A stretch of DNA of 64,000 nucleotides from Cladosporium sp. IMV 00045 (lineage: Eukaryota > Ascomycota > Dothideomycetes > Cladosporiales > Cladosporiaceae), in assembly GCA_001931905.2 (NCBI GenBank), contig MSJI02000853.1:89375-153374 (forward strand), read 5' to 3'. The notes beneath the pieces were generated by a model, which had not been told where the DNA came from, made no database searches, and saw nothing but the letters and a program-made list of their open reading frames with translations. The position numbers and the translations under genes were made by a program. This document shows positions 3,957 through 24,879 of the stretch, piece after piece (within the stretch, counting starts at the first letter, position 1; each line of letters starts with the position of its first letter).

Positions 3957-4446
3957 CAGGCATGTCTGAGACTGACGTCTGTTGCATCATGTGCAGCATC
4001 TTGGATGGCAGAAAAGCCTCGAAACATATTCATGAGGTAGTATTGACAGAAACACTGCGTTTATGCAGAGACAGTTTACACAGATTCGTTCCAGAGATGA
4101 GCATTAGTATTTCTTCAGAAGAACGAGGGCTTACTTTGTTAAATGTCGCTAACCTAAGCCGGTGTCAAGCCACAAAAGAGTAGTGTCACTATTTGATATT
4201 GGCAGATAACATAATCCCTTGATCGAATGCTTCTCCATTGAATGATACAAAACACACAGAAATTTTCGCTCAGCCCGACTTCGATAAGAAAATCTTTCTA
4301 GATTCGAATCATGCCAGACGAGCGAAGCAACGAGCCAAAGGAGCGACTTGAACCTCGTCCGTCTTCACACAGGCCCTTACCTCATCAACCAATGCCTTCA
4401 ATCTTTGGGTACCCTAAGCTAATCGACTGTCCAGATGTTGCAACAT
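3957..4446. other. Intergenic, no gene seen
   Basis: This lies between the 3' end of the receptor pseudogene and the 3' end of the convergent LPMO gene. No feature was recognised. Confidence 0.5.
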
Positions 4447-7343: not shown

Positions 7344-9524
7344 TCAAGCGACGACGAACGTGTTAGCATCCCAATCATACTTCCTCCCCAGCCTACCCGC
7401 CAAAAAGAGCAGCTGGTACCCCTCAACCTCAGACGCATGCGGCCTGTGCAATGTGATCGGTGTGCCGTTCATTGAAGCCGACGGGGTGAAATGGTACATT
7501 GAACCCCAGCGGGGCGTCATGGAGAAGCCCAAGTCCGCCATCGCGGATTCGAAATCTGCCCATGCCGCGGAACCGCGTGCTTTGGATTTGCAGAAGAGGT
7601 TGGCGAAGAAAGACGCTGTTGACGCTTTCACTGTGAACCGCTGCGGTGGCTCGATCGGTGCAGGCGGGGGGATATCTGGAGGAGCTGCGATGGTGTGGAC
7701 GGGCGATGTGGCAGGACGTGTCTTCTCTTTTGTTTTTTGAGGAGTCGGATGCAGATCGACCGAGGATGGTGGATCTGTCGGGAGCGGGACGTACGTCGTT
7801 TGCTTGTCGGCTTTGTCCTTTTTGCCTTTCGCCTGTGTGTACATCTCTTCTAGGTCTCGCAAGGAGTCTTGCACGGTGCCGTCATAGAGAGCCCCCAAGG
7901 TTGCTGTTCCCGTTTCTTTGAGAATGAAGTCATCCAGTGCGGTGACAGCATCGCTAGCTGTCTGCGATTCGAGAAAGTCGTCTGTCTTGGATAGGGAGTC
8001 TCCAAAGTCGGCCTCCGCTTTCAGGTTGCTCAACTTGCCATCCATCTCCTTGGATCGAGCGGTGAATAGAAGCCCAGACTTGCTTGAGGCGGGTACCATG
8101 GGAATCGTAGTGGACATATTGTATATGAAAGTGACGATGATGACCAGTTCTCCCAGCGCAGCCATCTCCGGGTCGCTGAGTTTCTGCTGGTCTTCTAGGT
8201 ATAGAGCATGGTGCTCGTCCAGCTTTTGTATCCATTCCAGGGCGGCGTCAGGGGCAGTATCCGGATGACAGAGTCGAAGGATGTAGTGGAGGTGGGGGTT
8301 GGAAACAGTACAGTCTCCTGGCTGTCCCTTCATAACGATCTTTGACTGACCCGTGGAATTGTTTGTGACGCGCCTGAAACGCTTGCTCGCCATGCGTGGG
8401 GTCGGTGCAATCCTGTGCTTGAAGCTAGCTTGACTCCGACGATACTCGAGGTGACATGCGTTCGAAAGCTCTTGTTTGATGAGGGTTCGTTTGATCTTGT
8501 TGGGCGCGTCTTTGAATAGCTGGAGAAGACGAATGATGTAGTCCCAAATCGCGACGCATTTGACGGTCGTGGTCATGGTGTCGAAGAAGGCTGCATGTAT
8601 GTCGCGATGCGTGAACGCCGGAATGGTTCGGCCTCGATCGTCAAAGACGAGCTCTGCGCGACTTGAAAACGTGGCGTTGACACCTTGGTGGAGTACAACC
8701 GGCTCTGATCTCAGAAGATGTAGGAAGTCTTCCAGTGCGGCCTTCGACTCCGTCGCTTGCTCACATAACTCTGTGATGGAGCTCTTGGCTTCGACTTTGA
8801 GGTTATAAAGCGCAGCAGACAGTGCTTTGTTGACACTCGTCTCGGGGGCCTTCTGAGCGATCGTTTCGGATGCTAGGCCAAGTGTTTTTTCTACGACATC
8901 ATTGAGTAGTCGCAAGAGCGTTGCTTGTCGGAGTAGAATTGCATTACCGACTCCACACGATGCGATGTAGCGATCGGCATATGCTGGCGGCAGACCTGCA
9001 AACAGCTTGGTCGCGTCGTGATGCTCGAGAGTCCGTCCGTACATTTTGCCGTCGAGAAAAACGACCTTTGCTCCGTCCGGGGCTTGCTGTCTATTCGGGT
9101 CTACTGTCCCGTTCATCGCCTTCTCAACCGTCTCTCGGTCCCCAAGCGCTCCATCAGCACCGTTGTCAAGCTGATCGGGTAGTGCTGTCAACGCTCGAAA
9201 CTTGAAGATGTTCAGAAAGTGACTTGGCTGGGAGCTCATGTCCCGCACGTTGTACTCTGGGATGAGAGCGCAGAATTCCGGATTAGTGCGATCGTAGCGT
9301 GTTTTAGGTGGCTGGCTACCGACGCAAGCCTGTTTAACTGCTTTCTCGCGTTGCTTCTTGGTGAACTTGTGCCAAAGGTTGTCCACCTCCATGCCGACGT
9401 TGTGATATTTCTGCGCGAGATCACGATGCAACACTTGCGGATCCGGAAAAGCCATCTCTATGACGACCCTGACTTCTTGCAGCGGCATGGTAGCAGTGTG
9501 ATCTTGACCTGGAGTCTGATTCAT
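7344..9524 (-). CDS. Ipa-like fungal protein with C-terminal HicA-like domain
   Basis: Single-exon protein of 726 residues of unknown function. The frame is open upstream to an ATG at 9740, but the first 72 residues look like read-through of leader. The Met at 9524 (MNQTPGQDHT) shortly precedes the conserved start of the family, so it is preferred. The N-terminal part (LHRDLAQKYHNVG, then IPEYNVRDM) matches from memory a set of Pezizomycotina proteins sometimes named 'ipa protein'. Residues ~640-726 hold the family's small C-terminal domain: W-x-D-F-x-x-A-M-x-x-L-G-F, G-S-M-Y-H-F, H-R-P-H and G-R-x-x-x-Y-D-W. It resembles the HicA/dsRNA-binding-like fold with the GS..F and H-x-P-H core. A Pro/Lys/Thr-rich linker precedes it (~residues 575-640). 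No signal peptide or membrane segment is seen. Family assignment is moderate; biochemical role is unknown. Confidence 0.7.
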   Translation of the reverse strand: MNQTPGQDHTATMPLQEVRVVIEMAFPDPQVLHRDLAQKYHNVGMEVDNLWHKFTKKQREKAVKQACVGSQPPKTRYDRTNPEFCALIPEYNVRDMSSQPSHFLNIFKFRALTALPDQLDNGADGALGDRETVEKAMNGTVDPNRQQAPDGAKVVFLDGKMYGRTLEHHDATKLFAGLPPAYADRYIASCGVGNAILLRQATLLRLLNDVVEKTLGLASETIAQKAPETSVNKALSAALYNLKVEAKSSITELCEQATESKAALEDFLHLLRSEPVVLHQGVNATFSSRAELVFDDRGRTIPAFTHRDIHAAFFDTMTTTVKCVAIWDYIIRLLQLFKDAPNKIKRTLIKQELSNACHLEYRRSQASFKHRIAPTPRMASKRFRRVTNNSTGQSKIVMKGQPGDCTVSNPHLHYILRLCHPDTAPDAALEWIQKLDEHHALYLEDQQKLSDPEMAALGELVIIVTFIYNMSTTIPMVPASSKSGLLFTARSKEMDGKLSNLKAEADFGDSLSKTDDFLESQTASDAVTALDDFILKETGTATLGALYDGTVQDSLRDLEEMYTQAKGKKDKADKQTTYVPLPTDPPSSVDLHPTPQKTKEKTRPATSPVHTIAAPPDIPPPAPIEPPQRFTVKASTASFFANLFCKSKARGSAAWADFESAMADLGFSMTPRWGSMYHFTPSASMNGTPITLHRPHASEVEGYQLLFLAGRLGRKYDWDANTFVVA

Positions 9525-11140
9525 GTTGGTGGAGTTGGCTAGGAATCGCGAGGTGTCAATACAACAAAGTGCTTGCTCAGCGGCGTTGAGATGGATGTAG
9601 AGGGAAGAGTGTGAGAGGAAGTAGAAGCTCGCTTGAAAGACACCGTTACGAATTGTGAACTGTAGATTGAAGTGCGCGTTATGTGCAGCGCTAGCACTTC
9701 GGTCCTTAGGCAGGCGACATCTGCTGCGTTCACTGATCATCTAAGGAATGGGGTATGAAACATCACATCTACGGTGGGGTTCCCGGGCATCTGGATGGAC
9801 AGGTAGATTCCTCGATCAGGCATCAGCAGAAGCCGCGGATTGCCGCATCCAAGAGTTGTCACGCACCTCCTATCACGTCACACTCTTGTTGATATCGCGT
9901 CGCACTCTTGTTGAGATCGCGTCTCACTCTCGACGGCCGGACAAATCCAAGGGTATCAGAGCAATTGTTCTGCACCAAAGCATGCATTCTAATGAGTATC
10001 GACTGCACGCACGGTCTTTTCATATGAGGGAATCCTTCGTGGCTTTCTATTATCTGGGCACTGGACAGATGTCAGCGTCGCTAAATCTTTTTCTCGGCGT
10101 TGTTTCTTTCGACGAACTAAGACTTATTACTGGTTCTCAGCACTGACAAGCGTAATAGAAGCAGTTAGCTTAGGAGTAGATGGATGAATTTCATTGACTA
10201 ATCACACACCTTTGTTGCCGGACCACGTGTGTGTTGGAGATGAAAGAACTTATCGATGCGCTGCCTTTTTGTGATCATTGTCCTAGGATGAACATTTACG
10301 ACTGATTGATAGCACGCAATGATTAACGAGCATATATAACTTATTAAATGTAAATTGTGTCTTTTGACGCGTATCTACCTGACTGCTTGATGTCAATGAA
10401 AGCACTCTATGCCATTGTCCTCGACATTTTACACTTACAGATGGCAAGCAGCGATGGGCATCTTGCTAACAGTCACTGACTCCATTGATCGATGCGGCAC
10501 CTTCGATGCCTGATGTCCAAGCACTTAAGATATGGCAATACATATGCGTTCTTTGCATCCATTTCCCCCAATACTGGTCTTGCTGGCTAACAGCACCGAC
10601 CAACCTGCTGGGAGACACCAACCTCTCACTGTTTCGGTCAGTACCCTTTACGTCAAGGTTGACAAGAGTTCGGCATCATCACATCAATGAACACATGTAT
10701 TTGTGTATTTCAGTGACTGAAAACGGAATGCTTTTGCTAGAGAAGAACAAAGAAGGAGGCGTGGTGACGTCTGCATAAGCCTAACCCAACGGTCTGGAAT
10801 GCACTCGGACCAAGGACCGTTGATAGGCTGTTGCGATAAGGTACAATAGTGGATCATCCCCGCGTCTGTGGAGAGAGGTCGAGTCCAGTCGAGTCCACAC
10901 GAGGCTGAGCGAGAGCTGATAGATCCTCGCTGACCTAAACATCACCATCCCACCAGTCCGGTAACCTCAAAATCTACTAATTCAATCGCCAATACCAACA
11001 TACCCACGCGAAGACACGCGTCTGAATCGCAAGCCAGCGACGATTCTGTTTCCCACCGTCGCCAAGCCAGCCGCTGCTGCATACGGCCGAGATCGCGTGA
11101 CGGCTACTTACACGCCCATTGCCGTTGGCGGCCGCGCCTC
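9525..11140. other. Intergenic between divergent genes, 1.6 kb
   Basis: It separates the Ipa-like gene (minus) from the phosphodiesterase gene (plus). It holds a small tandem repeat at 9879-9934 and two adjacent copies of GTCGAGTCCA at 10879-10898. No protein-like frame was found. Confidence 0.5.
9879..9934. repeat. 22-bp tandem repeat, about 2.5 copies
   Basis: Units at 9879-9900 and 9901-9922 differ at only two positions; a degenerate third start follows to about 9934. Core CACTCTTGTTGA.ATCGCGT. Its meaning is unknown. Confidence 0.7.
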
Positions 11141-13111
11141 ATGAACAACACTGAAGAGCATGGATTCACCTCTTCTGGCGGAGAGTCAGCGTTGCGGCGC
11201 AATCTGGACGGCGCCCGAACCACTTCGTTCGGCGGCGGCAACAGCAACAGCGGCAAGAGAGGGAGAGGCAGTCGTGCCGGTCGCAAACCGGCTCTGCAAG
11301 TGATATGCCTAGGCGCGAGCGGCGGACCTAGCGAGGAGAGTGTCACTGCCTTCTTGGTACGAAGTGCTGCAACGGAATGGGCGAAAAGTAGCATACTCGC
11401 AGTGGACGCCGGCAGCCATTTGGCGCCGATCACTAGAATCGTCGAGAGAGACTTTGCTCTCACCAAGCAGCAGGCAGACGCAGAGGAAAGACATGAGGCT
11501 GCAAAGGGAGTTCAGACGCCTTGCTTGAGCCAAGATCTCGCGAGGACATCGCTGTCTCCTACACAAGACATGGAGGGAGATACCGAGAGCTCCGATGCTG
11601 AAGAAACGCCCAAACCGGAACCCATGTACATGTCGCATGGGCCATTCACTGGGATGAGACTACCACATGCTTCTGCCAGAGCAAATGCGCTGCATCTGCT
11701 GCAGACGTATATCTCGACTTACCTCATAACACATCCCCATCTGGACCACATATCTGGATTCGCGATAAACACGGCTGCCTTCCACGCAACCTCTAAGCCA
11801 AAGACCCTTGCGGCTTTGCCTGGCACTGTTGACGCCGTCAAGCGACATATCTTCAACGACGTCATTTGGCCAAACCTTAGCGACGAAGACGGCGGTGTAG
11901 GATTCGTCACTTTCCAACGGTTAAAGGAAGGTGGTGATCCAATGGTGGGCGAGGGCGAAGGGCGTGGATACATCGACGTCTGTGATGGCTTGGGCGCGAA
12001 GGCGTTCAAAGTCAGCCACGGTGTATGCACCAAGTCTCCTCCGGCACACCAACACCGTGGCAGCATTCCCAACATTGCAGACACCAATCATGGAGGTTCC
12101 GCAGATCTGACTGGCCAAAATCTGGCGCGTTCTATGTCGCAATACTCTACACCCGGTACTCCCGGACCAACGCCCAGGGCAAGCTTCCACAACAACCAAC
12201 CGTCTCCGCATATGCATCCGCAGGAAGGGTCCTGCGTTGTGGACAGTACAGCGTATTTCATCCGGGACAGTGAAACAGGCAGAGAGATCCTCATCTTCGG
12301 GGACGTGGAACCGGACTCACTATCACTGTCCCCTCGCACCCACTTGATCTGGGCAGAGGCATCTAAAAAGATAGCCAGCGGCTGCCTGACGGGCATTCTC
12401 ATCGAATGCTCCTACGACGACAGCCACTCAGATGAATACCTGTTTGGCCATCTCGCTCCTCGCCACTTAATAACCGAGCTCTGCGCACTTGCATCTTTAG
12501 TCCGAGAAGCACGCTTCCAACTCGAAGCGGAAGACAGGTACATCAAGAAGCGCAAACGCTCCGGCATATCCAGCGGCGAAGTCGCACGCCATGCTGTAGG
12601 CGAAAGCGAGCGAAAACGCAGCCGCAGCCTTGCAGGCCGAACGGTGAGCCAGAACCACCGCCGCCGCAGCGAGCCCGACCATAGCATGCCCGACTCACCT
12701 CCGATGCAGGCCTCCACAGGCCCACCATCCCCTTCTAATCCCGCCTACCCAACCTCAGACGCAAGCCCCGATGTCCCAATGTCCCCCATGTCAACCTCCC
12801 ACCCTCACTACCACGCGCAAAACCGCCCGCACTTCGGACCAAACGGCTTCACCAAAGCGAGCACATTTGACGTGGGCAACCGAACCAATCTCGCACAGGA
12901 GACGCCCGCGAACGAAGAACCCTGGGAGCCGCCTTTGAAGGGCCTGAAAGTGGTGGTCATACACGTCAAAGATACTTTCAAGGACGGACCGCATGTGAGT
13001 GAGGTCATTGAGGAGGAACTGAATAATTACGAGCGCGCGTTGCAGGAGGATGGGAAGGGGTTGGGGTGTGAGTTTGTTATTTCGAAGGGTGGGGAGGGAT
13101 ATTGGTTTTAA
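11141..13111 (+). CDS. PDE1: Class II (low-affinity) 3',5'-cyclic-nucleotide phosphodiesterase
   Basis: Hydrolyses cAMP to AMP, ending PKA signalling in the cytosol; the family includes yeast Pde1 and Aspergillus PdeA. Single exon, 656 residues, longer than the ~370-residue yeast protein because of Ser/Pro/His-rich and basic inserts. Features in order: a β-lactamase-like start (LQVICLGASGGPSEESVTAFLV, residues ~52-73), VDAGSHLAPI (~88-97), the metal-binding H-x-H-x-D-H at 198-203 (THPHLDHISG), a second metal region LIFGDVEPDS, ILIECSYDD, HLAPRHLITEL, and the C-terminal VVVIHVKDTFKDG typical of the family. The start is the first ATG of the frame. The inserts (~120-165, ~300-375, ~465-585) look disordered. 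The gene is intact and lies beside the gasdermin locus, tail to tail with it; this seems fortuitous. Confidence 0.92.
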   Translation: MNNTEEHGFTSSGGESALRRNLDGARTTSFGGGNSNSGKRGRGSRAGRKPALQVICLGASGGPSEESVTAFLVRSAATEWAKSSILAVDAGSHLAPITRIVERDFALTKQQADAEERHEAAKGVQTPCLSQDLARTSLSPTQDMEGDTESSDAEETPKPEPMYMSHGPFTGMRLPHASARANALHLLQTYISTYLITHPHLDHISGFAINTAAFHATSKPKTLAALPGTVDAVKRHIFNDVIWPNLSDEDGGVGFVTFQRLKEGGDPMVGEGEGRGYIDVCDGLGAKAFKVSHGVCTKSPPAHQHRGSIPNIADTNHGGSADLTGQNLARSMSQYSTPGTPGPTPRASFHNNQPSPHMHPQEGSCVVDSTAYFIRDSETGREILIFGDVEPDSLSLSPRTHLIWAEASKKIASGCLTGILIECSYDDSHSDEYLFGHLAPRHLITELCALASLVREARFQLEAEDRYIKKRKRSGISSGEVARHAVGESERKRSRSLAGRTVSQNHRRRSEPDHSMPDSPPMQASTGPPSPSNPAYPTSDASPDVPMSPMSTSHPHYHAQNRPHFGPNGFTKASTFDVGNRTNLAQETPANEEPWEPPLKGLKVVVIHVKDTFKDGPHVSEVIEEELNNYERALQEDGKGLGCEFVISKGGEGYWF

Positions 13112-13889
13112 TGTTTTGAGTTTTGGCTTTTGGTTTGGGGATCCTTTTCTGGATGGCTTTGGAGGGTTCTTTTTAGTACGATGGGACATTCTGGATGAAA
13201 AAATTGGGATTGGAGGACGGGAGGAAGGCCTGGATTGGTTGGGAATGGGATAGGATGGCATGGGGTAGGATGCCTTTCATCTTGGCATTGTGGGCACCTT
13301 TTGATGTTTGGGTCTTCTCAGGTTTCGGACTCTTTTCTCATTTGCACTTCGTCTTGACGATTTCGGGTTTCTGGTTTCCTTGATGGGATAAGCTATGGGC
13401 GATGGTGGGAGGCTTGGGTTGATACCCGGTCGGGTGGTTGGGTGGTTTGGAGGTTTGTCTTTGGTTTTTTGTCATCATTCGTCTTCTTTCAGTCACTTTA
13501 CCTTCTCGGCTGCTGTGTTAAGTAAAGATTGTTCGAATCCATCGACAGTTATCGGCTACGTTCTCACATCTTTCTGAAGTGATTGAAGCCTGGTGATTGG
13601 GATTTTGCCTGTACCAAAAGAATGCATTGCTCCCCACAAGGACTTGGAGATGAGCAAACAACTGCTTCTTTCGATCTGTTTAGGCCCTTGATTACGAAGC
13701 TTTTCGGCCTTTCATTGTGAAGAACAAGAAGGAGTAATAGAAATATTATTGTTTCCTCCGAAGTCGGCCCGGTCAACATTCTAAACATCCATGCCATCGA
13801 GCTTTCTCTTATTCTGCTTGTTCATCCGATCCCATCAGTCAACCCTTGACCATGCATTCCCAGTTACTTTCTTCAGCAAACCATCAATC
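13112..13889. other. 3' region of phosphodiesterase gene, T/G-rich
   Basis: Holds the presumed 3' UTRs of two convergent genes. It is T/G-rich on the plus strand and has no protein-like frame. Confidence 0.5.
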
Positions 13890-14995
13890 TTATGCGTCAT
13901 ACTCATCATCACTATCCGACTGACCACCGGAGAATCTGCTTTCGAGCTCCGCTTCAAGCTCCTCCCTCTTTCGCCCTACGTACTCGGGAACAACCACCGC
14001 GGTCAGCGGATCTTGTTCGTCATCCATCGCGTACTGGAGACCTGAGGTCGAGGAATCGCGGGTCAGCTCTTGTTTGAGCCGTTTGTGCTCAGCGAAAAGC
14101 TTTGGAGTCAGCACATGTATGCGGCATGTTAGCATCGAGCACTCACCTCAGTTCTGCGGAAGAAGCCTGTGCGGAAGGCAATTCCACTCATGAACAGTAC
14201 CACGCCGGAGTCCTTTTATTATCAATTTTGCGACATGGCAACTCTGGTTTCGGCATGCTCACGTCTTTGTACTTGATCCAGGTCTTGTCAGTCCCTTGCT
14301 CCCACCATCGCAACGTAGGGCTAGCCTGAAGCACATCTGCTACGTTGGCCTGCACGCCAACCGTGGCCGACGATTCTGGGGAATGAAGTACTGAAAGAGC
14401 ACAGCTCTTCGCAGTGTAGGTCCCGGTGATCACCCAAAGAGTCCGCTTTTGTTTGGAGAACTCCTCCCAGTCATCAAGAAGCTTACGCATGTTCTGCGGG
14501 TCTGTCACCCACGTACAAGCCTTTAGATCCCTTGTCAATTGGCTGCACTTGATGTCTCCAGCGGTGATGAGAACTGCTCCCGCGCCTCTCTTTGTGCCGA
14601 AACTCATGGTGAAGCCGCCAGAGATAGGAGCATCAGGAATACTGACTGCATTAACCACAATGCTGCAGCAAGAAGGCCCGGATAGACTTACTTAGCTTTC
14701 AGGCTGGCTTCAATGTTCCTCTCCTGGACGCTCTCGGACAATTTGATGGGCCATTCAATCCCAGCTTGATTATCTGTTGTTATCAGCCTCGTTGGTGGCT
14801 TCCATTCCTCATCTCAAGGCTCTTGGGTTCCACGTTGGCGATGTCTACAATGTTCCTCCAGTGACCACTTTGGTTGAAGTAGCCGCAGCTTCCTGGCTTT
14901 ATGGAGCTTCCTGGTACCTTGAAGTAGAGAGCATGTCCCTCTGGATGGTTTCGGAGCTGTCTGGCGTAAACCTCATTCAGATCTGATCCCGACAT
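13890..14995 (-). pseudogene. Fungal gasdermin-like pore-forming cell-death protein, one frameshift
   Basis: Homologue of the fungal gasdermins (RCD-1 of Neurospora, HET-Q1 of Podospora). These form membrane pores and kill the cell once activated, in HET-Q1 by cleavage of a short C-terminal tail. Four exons can be read: 14995-14692, 14641-14263, 14212-14147 and 14099-13890. The introns are 50, 50 and 47 bp with GTAAGT, GTGAGC and GTGAGT donors, and phases agree, for ~318 residues. Family marks are an N-terminal YARQLRNHPEGHALYF, PGSCGYF followed by G-x-W and VDI, then WPIKLSESV, GAGAVLI, a Trp-rich TLRWWEQGTDKTWIKY block and GVVLFMSGIAF. The C-terminal ~65 residues are charged and would be the regulatory tail. 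Within exon 1 the frame changes at about 14814-14822 with no possible intron; conserved sequence continues in the new frame, so one base seems lost. The gene is divergent from a caspase-like protease gene. Confidence 0.8.
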
Positions 14996-15308
14996 GGTAA
15001 AAATCGCGCCGCTTTCTTTAGTCTTTCGTTGCCGAGAGATTGAACGAGAATGTGGATCTAGAGTTCTTACTCATGTCGGGCTGAAAGACAGGTCCCCGTT
15101 GGCTTGCCGAGGGGCTTGTGGGGTGGTACATTGCTGCAGAACGGATGTGCATAAGCGAAGGTGCATATGAGTGGCGTTTTCGCAGCCCGAGCTGAGAATC
15201 AGCAATGATCACACAAACATCGATAGCCAAGTCGACATCTCTACACTTCGCTTTCACAATCCACGCTCTAGAATGTTTGCAATGGAGAGAGCTTGAAAAA
15301 CAGCAAAT
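14996..15308. promoter_or_regulatory. Shared divergent promoter of gasdermin and protease genes
   Basis: 313 bp lie between the two start codons, which point away from each other, so both genes probably share control. No clear TATA box or factor site was recognised. Confidence 0.5.
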
Positions 15309-17403
15309 ATGGCACGGCAGATTGTCCTGAGACAGCGATCCTGTTCCACAACGGATATCGGCATGGCTCAAGGTTCACCGTCCGACTTGGACTCCTACTA
15401 TGTTCAGCCTTGCAAGCATCATCCGGTCGCTCCTCAGTATCCCGATGGGAACGCGACCCAACATCTGCAGAACCTTTCAGAGTTTGTCAAGGCAGTGGCA
15501 GAAGGTCTTTCGATACTCACTTTTCCACGTCCGGAGCAACCCTACGCGAGTGTGCATGCATTGATGATCAGCTGGGAAGATGATGATCTCGGAACTGAAG
15601 CAGATATTCAGCGTCTCCAATGCCTTTTCGAGACAAAGTACAGATTTTCCACCACTCACTTCAAAATACCTTCCAGCAGGAATCCAGAAATTGACCTCGA
15701 CCTAGCGATTGCGAAAACAAAGGCACTGTATGGGAGAGAAGATGACGGGCTTATCATTCTATACTATGGCGGTCATGGCGAGATCGACAGAACCACGCAA
15801 CACTCAGTCTGGAAAGCTTGGAAGTTTCCACCGAAACATGTACATGCAGCCTCCTCGCCCCAAATCGACTGGACCGAGGTTCAAGAAAACGTCTTGAAAT
15901 CCAGAGGAGATGTACTTTTCATCCTTGATTGTTGCTATGCCTCTGGTGCTGTGCAGAACTTTGACCAAAAGTATGGCGTCTATCAAAACCAAAAGCGGCA
16001 ACGAAATTTCTTGCTGGCTTGCGGCAACGAAAAGGCTTCCAATCAAAACACATTCACGAAAGCCGTAATTTTACGAGTTGGAACACCTCGACACACCGTC
16101 GTGCACAGTGTACTCGCGCCATCACAGAATCGTGGCAAATAAAGCAATACACCAGTGGACCACAGCGCCAATCCACATAGGCGAACAAAGCATTGTGCTG
16201 GCGCCGCTTCCCCTCCCCGAAGTTCCATCACCAACCGATCAGCAGCAAGTGGTCTTACGCGAGGAGAGCCTGCTTCAAACGAAGTCCCGATGCAGGATTC
16301 TGATATCTGTCACGCTGACCGAATTTGGCACACAATCCCCCGGGGACGCCTGGGTAGAGTGGTTTAGAGATCATGCTCCGGCGAACATAGCAGCGATCGA
16401 TTTCCTTGACGTAGTCAGGCCTGTGGCTGCCCTTTCCAGTAACTCGGACTACCTAATCTTTAGGCTCCCAGTATCGGTCTGGAATGCCATGACACCTAAC
16501 CCCGCTATCAAGTTCCTATCGATTGTTTATTCCGACAACGTCTTGTATCACGGTGCTGACGGGTCGCGAGGGAAAGCTGCGGTGGAGACACCGGAGGTTC
16601 GCGAGATATCCCAGGGGCGCTTTGGTCAGCTCTTGAGAAACGACCCACTTGCAAGACACTTGACCTCGTTGCCAAATCCGGTGGACCTTCACCATCAAAC
16701 AGTTGCATCATCGCATGAATTTGACGAAGAACCAGACTTCCAGCGGGGAAGAGAGACGCGGGCAAGCGAAAATACACAGCGACTGACAGTAAACACGGAG
16801 AATCCTCGCTCTACCAATAACGAGATTTCACGTAAGCCCTCAAGCTTCTATGGATTGGGAAAAGTATTCTCGACGGTGTGGTCTGAGCCTGCTGGGGAAT
16901 CTGACGAACAATCTCGAAGTCCTGTCCGTCTCCCATTTGTAATACCAGGAAGATACGGCGGAGATGCCATAGCCAGAGTACAAAGGTTTGTAGTCATCAG
17001 AGAAGGTCTTTCTTATTGCAACGTCCTTCCTATCTCAACTCACGGCGAACGAGGCGTAGCGAAGCGGGGATTGGTCAAATCTGAGCATTGCATCATATAC
17101 ACCGACAAATCGGCCGCAACCCAGCCAGGAGAGCAAAGTATGATGCCGAAGCCAATTCGCATGGATCCAGAATCACCTGTGGGCATCCTACATCCAATGT
17201 CTCGGCTTGATCTTGCGAGGGTCATGACTCTCGATCACAATCTGAGAGTGTAATCTCTCGGCAAGATCAATGAAGATTCTATGCAAGAGCTCATGCGACA
17301 ATTCAAGCATGTTTGGCGAAGGCGCACGGCTCAGGGCGCTCTTGAAGCTTCTATGAGGAAAGTTGAAGATTACAGCGCCGGACGGGACAAGGAACCGGAC
17401 TAA
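15309..17403 (+). pseudogene. Caspase-like (C14) protease fused to DUF6590-type domain, broken
   Basis: Predicted cysteine protease of the caspase/metacaspase clan. Residues ~83-260 form the domain: HALMISWEDDDLG, a catalytic His in LIILYYGGHGE (~15751-15783) and a catalytic Cys in DVLFILDCCYAS (~15909-15945). Beyond a Ser-rich linker, the C-terminal ~150 residues match DUF6590 (GKVFSTVW near 16858; RFVVIREGLSYCNVLPIS near 16984; HCIIYTD; PMSRLDLARVMTLDHN). Two lesions are seen. One extra T in the T4 run at 16069-16072 shifts the frame just downstream of the protease core, and homology resumes at once in the new frame. A TAA at 17251-17253 then cuts the DUF6590 domain, although the frame stays open with fitting sequence to a stop at 17401-17403. 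The start is the first ATG; a second lies at 15363. Neighbouring gasdermin suggests that it was the activating protease; that link is inferred. Confidence 0.75.
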
Positions 17404-17923
17404 GAAGAAGATGAAAGCGATGAGTAAGAACGTAAGGGATTTTGGGAATGGATTGGTAACGAGAGCACAAAGCTCGATCTTCGAACGGTCTTTTAGTGAT
17501 GTGTCGCCGGATTTCTGGATTTTCATTGCACTCGGAGGAAATGCATGCACGCTGCCTTTGGATCACTTCTGGGATGTGGTTTCTCTAGAATCAGCTGATG
17601 GCAGAACGGAGACATTACTTAACGTTGATTTTCGCAAGAAGCCCGTCAATTTCGTACACCATCAGATGTGTCGCCTGGTGGGTTCTTCTTGAATGCAATC
17701 CTGCTATATCAAGATCGGACTTAGCTATTTTGTGTGAATAGACACATTTACATGCACATGTGGTCAAACCCTCTGTTAACGTCAGGTCCCACTTGATTCC
17801 CAGGGACTCGGAAGCGACGTGAAGCTTAAAACCTTAAATTCCAATTGAACTTCCCGAAGTGTCAAGCAGAGCCTCAAACACGACTTCTACATACACATCT
17901 AGACACGTCACGCCCTCGCAACA
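17404..17923. other. Intergenic, no gene seen
   Basis: The 3' flank of the protease gene and 5' flank of the CYC2-like gene. Open frames here overlap the end of the pseudogene and do not look like protein. Confidence 0.45.
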
Positions 17924-19165
17924 ATGCGACCCAACATCGCCCACACGCGAACGCTCGCGGCGCGAGCAACTCAACAATGCCAACGAACCGCAACTCGAAC
18001 GACCACCCGGAGCTTCGTCCAAACCACCCGCCTTCGCAACCAACAAATCCCCCACTACGAACCGCCATCCCCCAAAGACAGCAAAGGCAACGACGCACGC
18101 CTCAGCCGCTTCTCCAAAATCCTCGGCGTCTCCATCGGCCTCGTAGTAGCTTTCGGCTACAGCACCTACAAGCACAAGAAAAAGAACGAAAACGGCACAG
18201 CAGGAAACGGAAATGAAGTAGGCGAAGACGGCTTCGTGAAATACCGCCTCGCAGGGCGCGAAGACATCTCCTCCACCTGCTCGATCTTCACCCTCCGCCC
18301 CCTCTCCGCAAACAGCAAAGGCATCGACTTGAAAACCACCACCACACCCTCAGCCGACCCCTCTTCCGCCCTCACAATCCGCAGCATCCTCTTTAAACAA
18401 CCCCAACTCCAAATCGCGCGCGCCTACACCCTCCTTCCCCCCTCCCCCTCCCAGCCGCCCGAAGAACTCCGCTTCCTGATCCGCCGCGAACGCAACGGCG
18501 AAGTCTCCTCCTACCTTCACCGCCTCCAACCCGGCGCGGAAATCGAGCTGCGCGGTCCGACCGCAGAATACACTCTCCCTCCCGCTACGCGCGCGCGCAA
18601 GATAATCTTTCTCGCGGGCGGTACAGGCATCGCTCCCGCTTTGCAAGCTGCTGAAGCAGCTCAGACGCAAGCGCAGGGCGCGGACGTGCACATCCTCTGG
18701 GCGAACAGGCGAAGGGAAGACTGCGAGGGCGGGAAGAGCGACACGGTGCTGCCGAGCAGTTCGTGGGGCGAGACGGTAGCAGGCTGGTTTAGCCCGTTCA
18801 GTACGCCAGCGAAAGACGACTCAGCGCAAACGACAGCGGTGGAGGGCCGGGCGAAGAGCGATGTCGTGCGTCGGCTTGAGGCGCTGAAACGCGCTGGCGG
18901 GGGAAGAGTTGCGGTCGATTACTTCGTGGACGAGGAGGGGAGTTTCATCCGGCCTGTGGATGCTACGACGCTGGTGAGGGGGGCGTTTTCGCCGGAGAGT
19001 GAGGGCGAGGAGGGGAAGGATTTGTTGTTTGTTTCGGGGCCGGAGGGGTTTGTGAGTGCGTGGGCGGGGAGGAAGGAGTGGGTTGGTGGGATCGAGACGC
19101 AGGGGAGGCTGGGTGGGGTGCTTGGGAAGTTGGATTTGAGGGGGTGGGAGGTCGTTAAGTTGTAG
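17924..19165 (+). CDS. CYC2: CYC2-like mitochondrial FAD-linked oxidoreductase
   Basis: Inner-membrane flavoprotein related to yeast Cyc2, which supports haem attachment to cytochrome c. Single exon, 413 residues. An Arg/Thr/Gln-rich presequence of ~45 residues without acidic residues suits mitochondrial import. One membrane segment (~66-81, ILGVSIGLVVAFGYS) is followed by basic residues. The ferredoxin-reductase-like fold shows the FAD motif RAYT (166-169), a second FAD-contact region ELRGPTAEYTLP, and the pyridine-nucleotide motif GGTGIAPALQ (232-241). The end GWEVVKL is typical of this family. Length fits fungal homologues. A cytochrome-b5-reductase-type enzyme is the alternative, but presequence, membrane segment and C-terminus favour CYC2. 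Confidence 0.8.
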   Translation: MRPNIAHTRTLAARATQQCQRTATRTTTRSFVQTTRLRNQQIPHYEPPSPKDSKGNDARLSRFSKILGVSIGLVVAFGYSTYKHKKKNENGTAGNGNEVGEDGFVKYRLAGREDISSTCSIFTLRPLSANSKGIDLKTTTTPSADPSSALTIRSILFKQPQLQIARAYTLLPPSPSQPPEELRFLIRRERNGEVSSYLHRLQPGAEIELRGPTAEYTLPPATRARKIIFLAGGTGIAPALQAAEAAQTQAQGADVHILWANRRREDCEGGKSDTVLPSSSWGETVAGWFSPFSTPAKDDSAQTTAVEGRAKSDVVRRLEALKRAGGGRVAVDYFVDEEGSFIRPVDATTLVRGAFSPESEGEEGKDLLFVSGPEGFVSAWAGRKEWVGGIETQGRLGGVLGKLDLRGWEVVKL

Positions 19166-19516
19166 ATGTACTGTCAATATTTGTGGATGCATATGAGTGT
19201 GTGTAGAGATATGGAGGTATGTATAGCGTGGCGGGATGCCGACTTGTACTATATTATGTTGATATCTTTTCTCTGTCATTGTCAGATTGATTGCTGAACA
19301 TATTGTACGGCTTGATTGTGGGAAGTAAAGAGCCGCGGGTTCAGCAGCTGCAGGTTTTGATATCTTTGCTTTTCTCATATACCTCTACTCCTTTTCAGAA
19401 TTAGGCAGATCGTGATTCTGATACGTCAAAAGCCCAAGACGGGCTCTGCAACAGACGAGATAGATAACTCAGATCCAAATCTAGATTCAATACCTTCCAC
19501 CCCTCCCACATACCTT
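19166..19516. other. Intergenic between convergent genes
   Basis: 351 bp separating the 3' ends of the CYC2-like and palC genes. No gene recognised. Confidence 0.5.
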
Positions 19517-20998
19517 CTAGTAATAACTACTACTCGTCCCACTCCTCCCAACCCCATACTCAGCCGCCGTGCCCGGAAACGCACCCACCGGCTCCGCAGC
19601 ACCAGGACTCGCATACCCACCAACAGCAGCACCACCACTCTCACTCCCACTATCCTCCTCGTCCCCACCAAACACCCCCTCAGCCTTCTCAACCGGCGCC
19701 CTCAACTGTGCGAGCTCAACCGCATCAAGCCTCTCCGGCGCCCAAGTGAGGGCAGTCAAACAATCCCTCCCCGTCGGAATTTGCGCCAGCAAAGGTTCAA
19801 AGTCCGGTACGATCTGCACGTTCACGGCGCTATTCTCCCTCTCCCATTTGACGTCTAGCATTTCCACGACACGCGCCTCCTCCAACCGCCCAGCATCGAG
19901 TCCCCACTCCGCGCCGCCCTTTTCGACGCGTCGATCTTCGCGCCGCTCGGCCCAGCTTTGCTTTAGGCCGCGGAGACCTTTGCGTTCTGACGACGAGGCG
20001 GAGGAAGAGGATGGCAAGCCAAGCTCGCGCTTCGCGGCGTTCAGCCAGGCGAGAGCTTCGCCTGTGTTTCCTGAGAGGTCGGCGTTGATGGCTAGGAAGC
20101 GGATTGCTTTCGCTTTGGCGGTGCGGCGGAGGTCGTTGGCGTAAGTTGTTAGGCCTTCGTCTAATTTGCCGGCGGGGCAGCGGGCGAGTAGACCGTGGGC
20201 TTGCGTGGCGTGCTCTGCTGCGGCGAGGGAGATGCGGGCATAGAGTTGAGCGCGGCCTTTGGGGATGGATGGCGCTTTGTACATCCAGTCTGTGTTGTTG
20301 TCGTTGCGGTCGTCGGCGACGGCGGCGGCGTGGGCGTCGTCTTTGAGGAGGACGACGAGGGTTGCTTCCGCGAAGGCGAGGGAGGCGAGGCCTGTGATTG
20401 TTGAGGGTTGGATGTCGGGCGGGGAGCCTTTGGAGGAGGCGGAGATGGTGGGGAGCGTGAGGATGAAGGTGTGGATGCTGTGGGCTGTGAGGAGGTGTTT
20501 CATTGCTGTGGTGATGGTGCTGGTTCTTTGGTCGGGGGAGAAGACATTGGTGCCGTAGAGTATGCGGAGTTGGGAGCGGGCGAGGAGGGTGTAGGTGTAT
20601 GCCAGGGAGGAGAGGGTGAAGGCGACTTCATGATGTAGGCCGGTGAGTTTGGGGCGTGGTGGTTCTCGGCCTGGGAGGGATGCAGAGAGCGTGGTCCGCC
20701 ACTCGACTTCTAGAGGTTTGAGGATTTCTACTTCGACTTCCTCCGTGCCGACGTCGCGGTATCCTGAGGCCGTGTTGAGGGCGAGAAGGTAGGGGATATA
20801 GGCATTGGCAGCATCCTGTACGGCGGGTAGATGTGAAGGTTGGTCACGTGGGGCGAGACGTTTGTGTTTCTTCAGGGCATCTTTGAAGACGCTGCGTTTG
20901 GTTGTGGCCAGTAAAGGTAATGAGGGGTGTGTGGTGCTGGAGAGGAAGTCTGAGAGATTGGTAGAGCTCGTGGTTGGCAAAGCAAAGGGAAATGGCAT
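19517..20998 (-). CDS. palC: pH-response regulator PalC (BRO1 domain)
   Basis: Component of the fungal ambient-pH (Pal/Rim) pathway. PalC binds ESCRT-III at the plasma membrane and helps bring about cleavage of PacC at alkaline pH. Single exon, 493 residues, close to the usual length. The start MPFPFALPTTSS and the segments HPSLPLLATT and ALKKHKRLAP are characteristic. The BRO1-like helical region contains TGLHHEVAFTLSSLAYTYTLLAR (~116-140), and the C-terminal part carries the family's LDVKWERENSAVNVQIVP. The end is Ser/Gly/Ala-rich. A single GCCAAG (PacC-type core) occurs upstream at 21124-21129 on the minus strand, which alone is weak evidence for PacC control. Confidence 0.88.
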   Translation of the reverse strand: MPFPFALPTTSSTNLSDFLSSTTHPSLPLLATTKRSVFKDALKKHKRLAPRDQPSHLPAVQDAANAYIPYLLALNTASGYRDVGTEEVEVEILKPLEVEWRTTLSASLPGREPPRPKLTGLHHEVAFTLSSLAYTYTLLARSQLRILYGTNVFSPDQRTSTITTAMKHLLTAHSIHTFILTLPTISASSKGSPPDIQPSTITGLASLAFAEATLVVLLKDDAHAAAVADDRNDNNTDWMYKAPSIPKGRAQLYARISLAAAEHATQAHGLLARCPAGKLDEGLTTYANDLRRTAKAKAIRFLAINADLSGNTGEALAWLNAAKRELGLPSSSSASSSERKGLRGLKQSWAERREDRRVEKGGAEWGLDAGRLEEARVVEMLDVKWERENSAVNVQIVPDFEPLLAQIPTGRDCLTALTWAPERLDAVELAQLRAPVEKAEGVFGGDEEDSGSESGGAAVGGYASPGAAEPVGAFPGTAAEYGVGRSGTSSSYY

Positions 20999-21755
20999 TT
21001 TTTTTTGTTCTCTTGTTTTGCTGTTGATGAGTACGGGCGGCTGAGGGGTGTTGTTGACGTTGCTGCTGCGAACTGCGGGGCGGACATATGGAGGGCAAAG
21101 AAAGCCAATGTGAAGCTGCTGTCCTTGGCGGGCAGAGGAGGATCCAATTCACTTACGGTGATCTATACAATCTTGTACTATCATGAACAAGGTATTACGT
21201 GAAAGATGGTATGCTCTTCTCGATCAGTACACTTGACCTGAGGTTAACTAGAGGATTGTCCACGGATACTAGAGAAAAGTGTGGTGAAGGCTCATGAGAG
21301 TTACGTTTCGACGGATCTGGCGTCCTTATGCAGATCATTCAGTTTGTCATCCGCGCCATCCGCAATGATACCATGATCAGTCAATTTAAGCTTAATATCA
21401 AGGATAAGAAGGTTGTTGGCAACAGCAGGCAGGCGGGAGGAAACTCGCACGAAAGAACGATGGTGATAGACATCCTCCTCCGAGCAAAAACCGAACTTGA
21501 ACCTTCGGCTTGCCCCAGATCTCTCCGCAGCCGAGGCAAAGGAAGGAGCGACAGACTGCTCGGTATAAGCAGAGCATTGGCTGGCTTGTGACGGCTGAAG
21601 CGGCGCTCTTCTTGCTCTTGTGATATTTATTATTGATTCCTTCCTCTTCCAATATCACCACTCAAAACCCTCTCCCCTTGTCACGCGTCTACCCTGCTTC
21701 ACCCATAGATACACGCCTCGCCTTTTGTAGCAACACACCTCTCCCACTATACAAC
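20999..21755. other. Divergent intergenic region, no gene seen
   Basis: Between palC (minus) and the acyl-CoA dehydrogenase gene (plus). Promoters of both are expected here; only short frames were found. Confidence 0.5.
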
Positions 21756-23166
21756 ATGGCGCCACTCGCCCGTACCCTCAGACCGCTCGCAAGAGCTGCC
21801 GCTTCTTCCACCACATTACGCTCTTCAGCAGCTCGCGTGCCTTTTGTACGATCAGCTCCAGTGTAAGCAAGACTTCAATACAGCAACAGCAACGCCCATA
21901 CTCATCCTCTTTCACAGCTCAAGATGCCTTTCCACCACCGCCAGGAAGAGCTACGACACAGACAACATCACCACCGAGGGTGAACCCTTCGACCTCTCCG
22001 CCATGCTCCCAACTCCTATCACCCACTTCAGCGAAGTCGAACAAGCCATGGCCGACACAGTCTCAAAGTTCGCCAACGAAGACATCCTACCCAAGGTCCG
22101 CGAGATGGACGAGAAGGAAGAGATGGACCCGGCTATTGTCGAGCAAGCCTTCGAGCAAGGTCTCATGGGAATTGAGATTCCTGAGAAGTATGGTGGTGCC
22201 GGCATGAACTTCACCGCAGCGATCGTCGGTATCGAAGAGCTCGCAAAAGTCGATCCTTCTGTCTCAGTCATGGTCGACGTGCACAACACCCTCGTCAACA
22301 CCGCCATCCTCAAGTACGGCAGCGAGCAGTCACGCAAGAAGTGGCTTCCCAAACTCGCCACCAACACCGTCGGTTCCTTCTGCTTATCTGAACCCGCTTC
22401 CGGCTCCGACGCCTTCGCCCTCAAGACCAAAGCCGAAAAGACCGCCGACGGCTACCGCATCAACGGCAGCAAGATGTGGATCACCAACTCGATGGAAGCT
22501 GGCTTCTTCATTGTCTTCGCCAACCTCGCCCCCGAGAAGGGCTACAAGGGCATCACCGCCTTCGTCATGGACAAGGAAACCAAAGGCCTGTCCATCGCCA
22601 AGAAGGAGAAGAAACTCGGCATCAAAGCCTCCTCTACCTGCGTCCTCAACTTTGACGACGTCGAAGTCCCTCGCGAGAACCTTCTAGGCGAGGAAGGCCA
22701 GGGCTACAAGTACGCCATCGGCCTGCTGAACGAAGGCCGCATCGGCATTGCCGCGCAGATGACCGGCCTGGCACTTGGTGCGTTCAGCAACGCCGCCAAC
22801 TACGTCTGGAACGACCGCAAGCAATTCGGCTCGCTCGTCGGTGAATTCCAAGGCATGCAATTCCAGCTTGCGCAGGCCTACACCGAGATTAGCGCCGCGC
22901 GCGCACTCGTCTACAACGCCGCGCGCAAGAAGGAGGCCGGCGAGGACTTCGTCAAAGACGCCGCCATGGCTAAGCTGTACGCCAGTCAAGTCGCCGGTAA
23001 AGTCAGCGGGCAGGCTATCGAGTGGATGGGCGGCATGGGATTTGTGAGGGAGGGCCTGGCGGAGAAGTTCTGGAGGGATTCGAAGATTGGCCAGATCTAT
23101 GAGGGCACGAGCAATATTCAATTGCAGACTATCGCGCGTCTTTTGCAGAGGCAGTATACTCAGTAG
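21756..23166 (+). CDS. Mitochondrial short/branched-chain acyl-CoA dehydrogenase
   Basis: FAD enzyme that makes the α,β-double bond in short or branched acyl-CoA during fatty-acid or Ile/Val/Leu breakdown. Exon 1 is 21756-21862 and exon 2 is 21918-23166; the 55-bp intron has a GTAAGC donor and CAG acceptor, giving 451 residues. Exon 1 encodes an Arg/Ala/Ser-rich mitochondrial presequence (MAPLARTLRPLARAAASS). Exon 2 carries the family signature GSFCLSEPASGSDAFALKT, then WITNSMEAG, the central β-domain, and the C-terminal helical domain with QIYEGTSNIQ, whose Glu is the usual catalytic base position of the short/branched-chain group. All expected segments are present. Substrate range cannot be settled by reading. 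Confidence 0.92.
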
Positions 23167-23634
23167 ATTGAAAGGGATTAAAACTGGTGTGATAGATTAT
23201 GTTCAAATGAATTATTATTTCAATTTATGTCGTACTTGTGCAAGTCCACTTTCTCACATCTTCTAATAATGATAACAAGAACGCAAGCGAAGCATCTTCA
23301 CATGCGAGAAACCCCGCAGCGGCGGCATCAAGCACTGCCAGCCTTGTGGACCCTTTGCGCGGCTGGACCTCGACGCCAGCTCAGGGCGGCCTGGCGGGCT
23401 GACTTGCTTATTATTGCCTGAACCCTCCACTGCACACCTCACTTACATCTTATCTCGTATACTTGTATTTCTCACTAACCGCCCTCCGCCTGTCTCTGTC
23501 TATACAACACCCCACCCTCACCTCCAACACCTCCCCCTCTACATCCACCCGGATCAGAGAATTATCACCTTTCCTACTGCCTAACCGAGAAAGAAAGACA
23601 CACACACATATACCCTCACCCACCCACACACACC
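23167..23634. other. Intergenic; CT/CA-rich leader of the kinase gene
   Basis: Pyrimidine-rich sequence from about 23470, ending in short CA repeats (23600-23634) just before the kinase ATG. It is probably promoter and 5' UTR. Confidence 0.5.
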
Positions 23635-24879
23635 ATGTCGCAGCCCCAAGCGCAGGTCCAGCCCTGCCGCTACAAGACGGGCAAGACGCTGGGAGCCGGC
23701 TCCTACTCGGTCGTCAAGGAATGCGTGCACATCGACACTGGCCGCTACTATGCCGCCAAAGTCATCAACAAGCGCCTTATGGCCGGGCGCGAACACATGG
23801 TGCGCAACGAGATCGCCGTGCTGAAGCGCGTCTCTATGGGTCATCAGAACATCCTCACGCTTGTGGATTACTTCGAGACTATGAACAATCGTGAGTGAGG
23901 ACTTGGCGTCGCTTCTCCATCCACATCTTCATGAGCATATGCCTTACTCACACTCAATCCCACAGTCTACCTCGTCACCGACCTCGCCCTCGGCGGCGAA
24001 CTCTTCGACCGCATCTGCCGCAAAGGCAGCTACTTCGAATCCGACGCCGCGGACCTCATCCGCGCCACCCTCTCCGCCGTAGCCTACCTCCACGACCACG
24101 GAATCGTACACCGCGACCTGAAACCCGAAAACCTCCTCTTCCGCACGCCAGAAGACAACGCCGACCTGCTGATCGCCGACTTCGGCCTCAGCCGCATCAT
24201 GGACGAAGAGCAATTCCACGTGCTCACCACAACCTGCGGAACACCAGGCTACATGGCGCCGGAAATCTTCAAAAAATCCGGCCACGGCAAGCCCGTCGAC
24301 GTCTGGGCCATCGGCGTCATCACCTACTTCCTGCTGTGCGGCTACACGCCCTTCGACCGCGACAGCAACCTGGAAGAAATGCAAGCCATCCTCGTCGCCG
24401 ACTACAGCTTCACGCCGCTCGAGTACTGGCGCGGCGTCTCCGTGCAGGCCCGGCAGTTCATCAAGCGCTGCCTGACCATCGACCCGACGGCGCGCATGAC
24501 GAGCCACGAAGCGCTGTCGCACCCGTGGATCGCCGGGCCGGAATCCGACAGGGGCGAGGAGGACTTGCTCCCGACTGTCAAGAAGAATTTCAACGCGCGC
24601 CGCACCCTGCACAAGGCTATCGATACGGTCCGCGCGATTAATCAGTTGCGTTCTGGCGGTTTGGGCATGATGGACGGGGCGAGTTCGACGAATCCGAAGC
24701 GCGTGCAGGACGAGGACAAAGATGGCGACAAGGAGATGCAGGACGCTTCTACGTCCGTGTCGGCTGCGGATGGGAAGGGCCAGAGCGAGGGGCAGATCGC
24801 GGAGCAGCAGAGGCGGATCGACGAGACGAGTAGGGGGTTGTGGGACGGGGGGATGCAGAAGGCTGGGCAGGCGGCTTGA
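23635..24879 (+). CDS. cmkA: Ca2+/calmodulin-dependent protein kinase I-type
   Basis: Ser/Thr kinase activated by Ca2+/calmodulin. Two exons (23635-23890 and 23966-24879) with a 75-bp intron (GTGAGT...ACAG) give 389 residues. The kinase domain has the glycine loop LGAGSYSVVKE (19-29), Lys42 in AAKV, HRDLKPEN (134-141, Asp136), DFG (157-159) and the activation loop TTTCGTPGYMAPE, whose Thr is the likely CaMKK target. After the kinase core, VKKNFNARRTLHKAIDTVR is the basic amphipathic autoinhibitory/calmodulin-binding helix of the fungal CmkA group. The tail is acidic and Gln-rich and probably disordered. The start is the first ATG in frame just after the CA-rich leader. Confidence 0.92.

What the first reader, a model, noticed from the sequence alone, without database searches (positions are those of the whole stretch)
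13890..17403. Divergent gasdermin / caspase-like protease pair: a fungal pyroptosis-like module
The minus-strand gene has the marks of fungal gasdermins (GHALYF, PGSCGYF, GAGAVLI, Trp-rich block). The plus-strand neighbour, 313 bp away and divergent, has a caspase-type His (YYGGHGE) and Cys (LFILDCCYAS). Known: HET-Q1 is activated by the subtilisin-like HET-Q2 encoded beside it, and fungal gasdermin genes often neighbour protease genes. Inference: the caspase-like protein was the activator and cleaves in the charged C-terminal tail. A caspase-type partner recalls the animal caspase-gasdermin axis.
Basis: partly seen in the sequence, partly recalled or inferred. Interest (0 to 1): 0.92.

Follow-up and report, generated by a model that had tools for sequence, protein, structure and literature searches.

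The report
Broken fungal gasdermin and caspase pair
A fungus that seems to have two subgenomes carries, at the same place in both, a head-to-head pair of a gasdermin-like (pore-forming) gene and a caspase-type protease gene; the pair looks damaged in both copies, and the two protease copies differ far more than the genes around them, as seen at fungal self/non-self recognition loci.

Summary

New here: each of the four genes carries a lesion in this assembly, and the protease is a sharply bounded island of divergence. Flanking genes have dS 0.24-0.43; the protease is saturated. Protease trees keep the two copies apart (AU p 0.03, 0.002), the gasdermin exon keeps them together. Six control comparisons with other gasdermins and their partners give dS 0.07-0.29. 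I read this as the relic of an allorecognition cell-death locus whose protease carried old allele classes. Cleavage and pore formation are inferred.

The parts
14813..14995 (-). Gasdermin-like gene, N-terminal coding part (starts MSGSDLNEVYARQ), open in one frame down to 14783
   Evidence: frame break at about 14812
14692..14813 (-). Gasdermin-like gene, second coding part (DEEWKPP...EASLKA), in another frame than the first part
   Evidence: the C831 copy reads the matching stretch in one frame; the donor at 14691 is my reading
14260..14641 (-). Gasdermin-like gene, main exon (IPDAPISGGFTMSF...WIKYKDV), core matched by the gasdermin profile
   Evidence: relatives also by NF051890; splice sites are my reading of the sequence
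14147..14212 (-). Gasdermin-like gene, small exon (DSGVVLFMSGIAFRTGFFRRTE)
   Evidence: same stretch in C831; splice sites are my reading
13890..14099 (-). Gasdermin-like gene, last exon: charged C-terminal tail (LFAEHKRLKQ...SDSDDEYDA), proposed inhibitory tail
   Evidence: the 85-aa frame that holds it is 82% identical to C831
14996..15308 (.). 313-bp divergent intergenic region between the two start codons
15309..16090 (+). Caspase-like gene, first frame: N-terminal leader and caspase domain with His (15774-15776) and Cys (15930-15935)
   Evidence: PF00656 1.2e-5; motif columns; fold of relative P0017
16069..17250 (+). Caspase-like gene, second frame: conserved middle part and DUF6590 domain, reached only after a frame break; the two open frames overlap at 16069-16139
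   Evidence: PF20233 4.1e-34; relative P0020 is open across the break
17251..17253 (+). In-frame TAA inside the DUF6590 domain
   Evidence: C831 and P0017 continue here
17254..17403 (+). Remaining coding-like 3' end of the caspase-like gene
15250..17750 (.). Island of divergence between window and C831: 48-76% identity per 250 bases, most flanking bins about 80-98%
   Evidence: dS
10934..13111 (+). Flanking gene: class II cAMP phosphodiesterase, control for synonymous divergence (dS 0.26)
17903..19165 (+). Flanking gene: FAD/NAD-binding oxidoreductase, control for synonymous divergence (dS 0.34)

Best explanation
The locus is the relic of a two-gene cell-death module: a divergent fungal gasdermin (the pore-forming executioner) and, head to head with it, a caspase-type cysteine protease that acts as sensor and trigger. 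In working relatives the protease would be switched on through its variable C-terminal domain (DUF6590 here; HET or Tle1-like phospholipase elsewhere) or by meeting a product of another strain, clip the charged C-terminal tail of the gasdermin, and let the rest insert into the fungus's own plasma membrane. The protease carried old, strongly different allele classes (or old paralogues) at one chromosomal place. The genome behaves like a hybrid with two subgenomes that brought in two such classes, and in this assembly the module is damaged in both. Shown here: kinship, architecture, synteny, lesions in the assembly, divergence island, gene-tree conflict. Inferred: activation, cleavage, pore formation, role in allorecognition.
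Against: The window's own pieces match no model in PADLOC or NCBIfam (0 of 3; the main exon again); only relatives do, far below curated cut-offs. PDB sequence searches with two window exons, the exon profile and one relative find no gasdermin. Comparison of the exon alignment with C407 alone was meaningless, and the exon profile scores C407 no better than 219 of 2000 shuffles and RCD-1-2 no better than 25 of 2000. In one search four unrelated PADLOC models match one row each, three of them better than bGSDM and one equal. No gasdermin fold could be predicted. The protease model is of low confidence outside the caspase core. Old allele classes and old paralogues with reciprocal loss are not told apart. 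The lesions rest on one assembly without reads.
Confidence: 0.72

Rival explanations
1. Birth and death of tandem copies: an ancestor had two old caspase-like paralogues beside the gasdermin, and each subgenome kept a different one. No balanced alleles and no allorecognition role are needed; the module is an ordinary gasdermin defence unit that decayed.
For: It would give the same pattern of saturated protease divergence with quiet flanks; a review describes birth-and-death evolution of fungal gasdermin genes (PMC10197012, passages).
Against: The own-genome search with the window's first protease frame finds one copy on each of the two contigs and only distant ones elsewhere (second frame not searched). 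Gasdermin exon divergence is also raised (dS 0.56) and falls to 0.18 at the far tail, as expected of linkage to an old allele.
Confidence: 0.3
2. The minus-strand gene is not a gasdermin but another small protein that happens to travel with a caspase-like protease, for example its inhibitor or substrate.
For: Single gasdermin model scores are weak and below curated cut-offs, and the window's own exon has none; PDB sequence searches and the fold of the exon fragment are negative or uninformative.
Against: Three gasdermin models (NCBIfam, PADLOC, and the profile built here, which are not independent of each other) pick the same stretch around LWVITGTYTAKS, in a register that agrees with RCD-1-2 and C407; the partner is a caspase-fold protease, as in known fungal and bacterial gasdermin clusters.
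Confidence: 0.14
3. The genes are intact in the organism and the lesions are assembly errors, so the module works in this strain.
For: One assembly only, no reads; the protease copy on C831 has a 695-aa open frame behind its early TAG, and a 643-aa protein identical to it is called in other contigs (P0016).
Against: Each of the four genes of this module carries at least one lesion, among them a missing 5' end of about 290 bases in the C831 gasdermin, while the neighbouring phosphodiesterase and oxidoreductase frames are long and open and the seven other gasdermin-like matches of the genome have no stop inside (one of them, on C110, is short).
Confidence: 0.12

Closest known systems
HET-Q1/HET-Q2 (Podospora anserina gasdermin and subtilisin-like protease)
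   Same: Two-gene cluster of gasdermin and protease, with a short C-terminal tail as the proposed inhibitory part
   Different: The protease here is caspase-type, not S8. Gasdermin-like frames beside S8 genes occur elsewhere in this same genome (C407, C936, C110). HET-Q facts are from passages of reviews; the original paper was not held.
Fungal gasdermin/CHAT protease clusters (19% of fungal gasdermin genes, PMC10197012 passages) and Aspergillus fumigatus hetB, a CHAT protease (PMC11138114 passages)
   Same: Caspase-related protease beside a gasdermin; the authors call hetB the first proof of a CHAT protease in heterokaryon incompatibility
   Different: The protease here matches Peptidase_C14 and not CHAT, and ends in DUF6590, HET or a Tle1-like domain. 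Whether hetB acts on a gasdermin is open in that paper, and whether the published survey already holds this subfamily could not be checked.
RCD-1 (Neurospora gasdermin)
   Same: Gasdermin core around VTGxxxA; two antagonistic allele classes at an allorecognition locus
   Different: [quoted passage not shown] here the divergence is strongest in the protease.
Animal caspase-gasdermin axis (caspases 1, 4, 5, 11 and GSDMD)
   Same: Caspase-fold protease and gasdermin as partners
   Different: Only a short tail instead of the large animal-type inhibitory domain, a protease fused to its own extra domains, and no shown cleavage.

Membership tests
Fungal gasdermins | Sequence kinship with gasdermins over the pore-forming core | tested here: met
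   Weak but consistent: NF051890 in 8 of 17 rows, the window's own exon not among them; genome-own gasdermin profile in 17 of 17, the window exon 3.2 bits with 1 of 500 shuffles as good. PDB sequence searches negative.
Fungal gasdermins | Gasdermin fold | tested here: inconclusive
   Only one exon could be folded, pLDDT 35.
Fungal gasdermins | Short removable C-terminal tail | tested here: inconclusive
   A charged tail of about 69 residues follows the core (my splice reading), but no cleavage can be shown.
Fungal gasdermins | Gene clustered with a protease gene | tested here: met
   Window and C831; three contig-length matches, which are indirect because the contigs could not be fetched.
Fungal gasdermins | Pore formation and cell death | not testable with these tools
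   Needs expression.
Caspase family (Peptidase_C14) | Profile match, caspase fold and His/Cys dyad | tested here: met
   PF00656 above cut-off for the window frame; fold of relative P0017; dyad in 28 of 28 rows. Against: of 10 relatives scanned 2 are above the cut-off, 5 below it and 3 (P0017 among them) have no C14 match; nor has the C831 protein, which matches an NCBIfam caspase domain at 5e-6, below its cut-off.
Caspase family (Peptidase_C14) | Proteolytic activity and cleavage specificity | not testable with these tools
   Needs assay.
CHAT proteases | Match to the CHAT model | tested here: not met
   No CHAT match (E up to 1; E up to 0.1); a SAVED-CHAT structure is rank 15 in the fold search behind caspases.
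HET-Q2-like S8 proteases | Peptidase_S8 domain | tested here: not met
   No S8 match in the window or C831 protease.
Heterokaryon incompatibility loci | Old, trans-species allele lineages with a narrow footprint | tested here: inconclusive
   Island and non-sister proteases found, but only two copies of one genome and mostly unnamed relatives; old paralogues not excluded.
Heterokaryon incompatibility loci | Causes incompatibility between strains | not testable with these tools
   Needs crosses or transformation.

The most novel reading that the evidence does not exclude
The caspase-type protease is a trans-species allorecognition determinant with old allele classes, and the hybrid diploid lives because the shared gasdermin executioner was disabled in both subgenomes: a fossil of a defused incompatibility, in which hybrids form or persist only after the cell-death executioner is lost.
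Probability: 0.22. Interest if true: 0.8.

Novelty: new variant of a known kind. Interest (0 to 1): 0.55.

Why it matters
Fungal gasdermin/protease clusters are known, but which partner diversifies, the pore-former or its trigger, is to my knowledge open. Here one locus gives conflicting histories for the two partners, with controls in the same genome. It also joins two fields: fungal self/non-self death and hybrid black yeasts. If parents of such hybrids have intact, different versions of this module, the idea that hybrids must first lose their executioner becomes directly testable.

Tried and rejected
PDB sequence searches with two window exons, the exon alignment and relative P0005 gave no gasdermin. 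AlphaFold of the main exon with 15 rows was useless (pLDDT 35), and the structural look at it listed no gasdermin, which says nothing about the fold. Comparison of the exon alignment with the single C407 protein was meaningless. Weak genome hits C496, C854, C908 and C646 to the exon were looked at and judged unrelated, since the alignments lack the core motif. The bGSDM hit on C932 (E 0.049) was not followed beyond an ORF listing; its fetched stretch L032 was not read. Scans of viral and prokaryote contigs with the exon alignment gave no relative. More distant caspase-like genes of the genome (C712 twice, C102, C33) have no exon relative in the fetched stretches (best E there 0.76). The first dS of the gasdermin exon (0.77) was rejected because part of the C831 row is out of frame; recomputed as 0.56. 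Literature: searches (terms around gasdermin with metacaspase, trans-species polymorphism, Hortaea, Cladosporium, Dothideomycetes, pseudogene, hybrid) listed 10 of 415, 10 of 1,363 and 8 of 1,040 papers, none of which by title or abstract start reports this locus; DUF6590 is in 0 papers. The library lacks most subscription papers and Clave 2022, so this is no proof of novelty.

One search used a wrong record as window and was repeated correctly.

Full report
What is there. The coordinates hold. On the minus strand a gene of about five coding parts (my splice reading) runs from an ATG at 14995 to a stop at 13890. On the plus strand, 313 bp away, a gene starts at 15309. The plus-strand frame 15297-16142 matches Peptidase_C14 (25.6 bits, cut-off 21.4) and the frame 16069-17253 matches DUF6590 at 4.1e-34. 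The minus-strand pieces reach no Pfam cut-off.

The genome. The window lies in an unnamed assembly of 49.87 Mb in 954 contigs. About 20 kb of contig C831 match window 4339-24239; outside the pair and the far end of the gasdermin gene the blocks are 88.6-92.2% identical. That fits Hortaea werneckii, whose reference assembly is 49.9 Mb with two subgenomes 89% identical (PMC5952469, passages); the species name and the word homeologue are my inference. C831 carries the same divergent pair in the same place: the gasdermin-like exon is 68% and the protease 63% identical in the amino acids matched.

The minus-strand gene is a gasdermin, by weak but agreeing evidence. Of 17 exon rows 8 match NCBIfam prok_gasdermin (best 0.013), the window's own exon not among them; three other models match one row each, one of them at 0.012. 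PADLOC bGSDM matches 1 of 17 at 0.032; four unrelated PADLOC models match one row each, three of them better (0.0018, 0.0021, 0.01) and one equal. With the bGSDM model I found an open gasdermin-like frame on C407 (1.2e-6) that matches RCD-1-2 in the PDB (0.0019), and with C407 six further frames in the genome. A profile of these seven plus the RCD-1-2 fragment matches 17 of 17 exon rows (E for one comparison 1.3e-6 to 0.0043); in 11 of 17 rows no shuffle of 500 did as well, in the other 6 between 1 and 7 did. The window exon has 3.2 bits and 1 of 500. The rows are related and the profile was reached through the bGSDM model, so these are not independent tests. The aligned core is LWVITGTYTAKS against VYMVTGIMVARG of RCD-1-2. 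The exon profile against RCD-1-2 alone is matched by 25 of 2000 shuffles, against C407 alone by 219 of 2000. Direct PDB searches failed, and the fold of the exon could not be predicted.

Co-occurrence. Besides C831, three gasdermin-exon proteins and three protease relatives report the same longest contig to the base (8478, 15354, 7819) and the same sources, among 17 x 25 = 425 pairs (the window's own P0001, and P0037 for lack of a contig length, were left out); one other pair lies within 1%. The contigs could not be fetched, so this is indirect.

Damage in this assembly. Window gasdermin: frame break near 14812. C831 gasdermin: about 290 bases including the start are missing, plus a frame break in the main exon. 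Window protease: frame break near 16070-16140 and TAA at 17251. C831 protease: a TAG in the N-terminal leader, which relative P0020 reads as coding; a 695-aa frame stays open behind it. Relatives open at these places exist (P0017, P0020). Reads were not available.

Divergence island. Per 250 bases, identity between window and C831 is 48-76% from 15250 to 17750; elsewhere most bins are 80-98%, with dips in the bins at 6750 and 7000 (74%), 13000 (78%), 14750 (76%) and 19250 (63%). Flanking genes: phosphodiesterase dS 0.26, oxidoreductase 0.34, BRO1-like 0.25, and the ORFs 7347-9740 0.24, 21709-23163 0.24, 4450-5307 0.43 and 7111-7737 0.38 (the last, 110 codons, overlaps another ORF and may not be a gene); three ORFs of the same listing that overlap these genes in other frames (dS 0.02, 0.02, 0.14) were left out. 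The protease pieces have pS 0.76 (saturated) and 0.66 (dS 1.6), with dN 0.23 and 0.44. The gasdermin main exon has dS 0.56 and dN 0.07 over 95 codons; the tail frame, which includes some intron, 0.18. Low dN against dS points to constraint before the loss. Controls: three gasdermin pairs (C407/C814, C936/C386, C110/C110) and three pairs of their partner genes (a DUF7580 frame, TPR and TPR-S8 frames) give dS 0.07-0.29. These pairs are presumed homeologues; synteny was not tested beyond the partner genes and neighbours, and the two C110 copies lie on one contig and may be a duplication. S8 domains were seen beside C407, C936 and both C110 copies, TPR only beside C386, DUF7580 only beside C34; for C814 only the DUF7580 frame was looked at.

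Gene trees. In the protease trees the window copy is sister to P0020 (starred) and groups with P0017, P0019, P0021, P0022 and the Cladosporium fusiforme protein P0024, while C831 stays outside. For the caspase part the separating forks are supported but not starred (86/79, 92/89, 81/80), and one clade of window, P0020 and C831 is rejected with AU p 0.030 (8 of 28 rows left out as identical, near-identical or long-branched; the tree with 27 rows has the same order). For the middle part the seven-row group without C831 is starred (97/94) and the clade is rejected with p 0.0019 (20 rows). In the gasdermin exon tree (18 rows, 94 columns) window, C831 and P0002-P0004 are together (83/90, not starred) and a protease-like split is rejected (p 0.006). 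The tested groups were named after seeing trees, and it is not known that the exon and protease relatives come from the same organisms.

Reading. A protease with old lineages and a sharp footprint beside a less divergent executioner recalls the heterokaryon incompatibility genes of Aspergillus fumigatus: there trans-species alleles are reported for several het genes, variation between allele classes reaches only some hundred bases beyond the genes, and hetB is a CHAT protease present or absent (PMC11138114, passages). In PMC10197012 (passages) a pseudogenisation route to allorecognition is proposed with het-Q1/het-Q2 as example. I therefore take the locus as the decayed relic of such a module. 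Old paralogues with reciprocal loss remain a serious rival.

Novelty. Fungal gasdermins next to caspase-related proteases are published (passages of reviews; Clave 2022 not held). As far as these searches show (listings only), new here are the C14-type protease family with exchangeable ends, this divergent gasdermin subfamily, and the island with damage in both copies.

Noticed in passing
L028:1309-2169 and L030:6431-9117 (contig C407); second copy on C814 (L034, L041): Open gasdermin-like frame divergent from frames with DUF7580 and Peptidase_S8 (taken as one protease gene): a HET-Q1/Q2-like pair. A second copy of the gasdermin (92%) and of the DUF7580 frame (95%) lies on C814.
   Followed up: partly
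L035/L043 (C936), L036/L044 (C386), L037/L045 and L039/L046 (C110), L038/L047 (C34): Five more gasdermin-like frames; TPR-S8 protease genes lie near C936 and both C110 copies, a TPR frame near C386, a DUF7580 frame near C34.
   Followed up: partly
P0033-P0037 (Elasticomyces, Rachicladosporium): The same caspase-like module is fused to a HET domain (P0035) or to a Tle1-like phospholipase domain (the other four), as if effector or sensor ends were exchanged.
   Followed up: partly
P0044: A gasdermin exon start that runs into unrelated sequence after LLITAG, perhaps a truncated or rearranged copy in a metagenome.
   Followed up: no
L024:7587-8780, L023:7563-8213 (C712), L026:4034-5176 (C102), L027:1384-2664 (C33): A second, more distant group of caspase-like genes without an exon relative of this gasdermin in the fetched stretches; the C33 copy lacks the GGHG and DCC motifs.
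   Followed up: partly
window 6750-7250 and 19250-19500: Two small dips of identity between window and C831 (74% and 63%) outside the pair.
   Followed up: no
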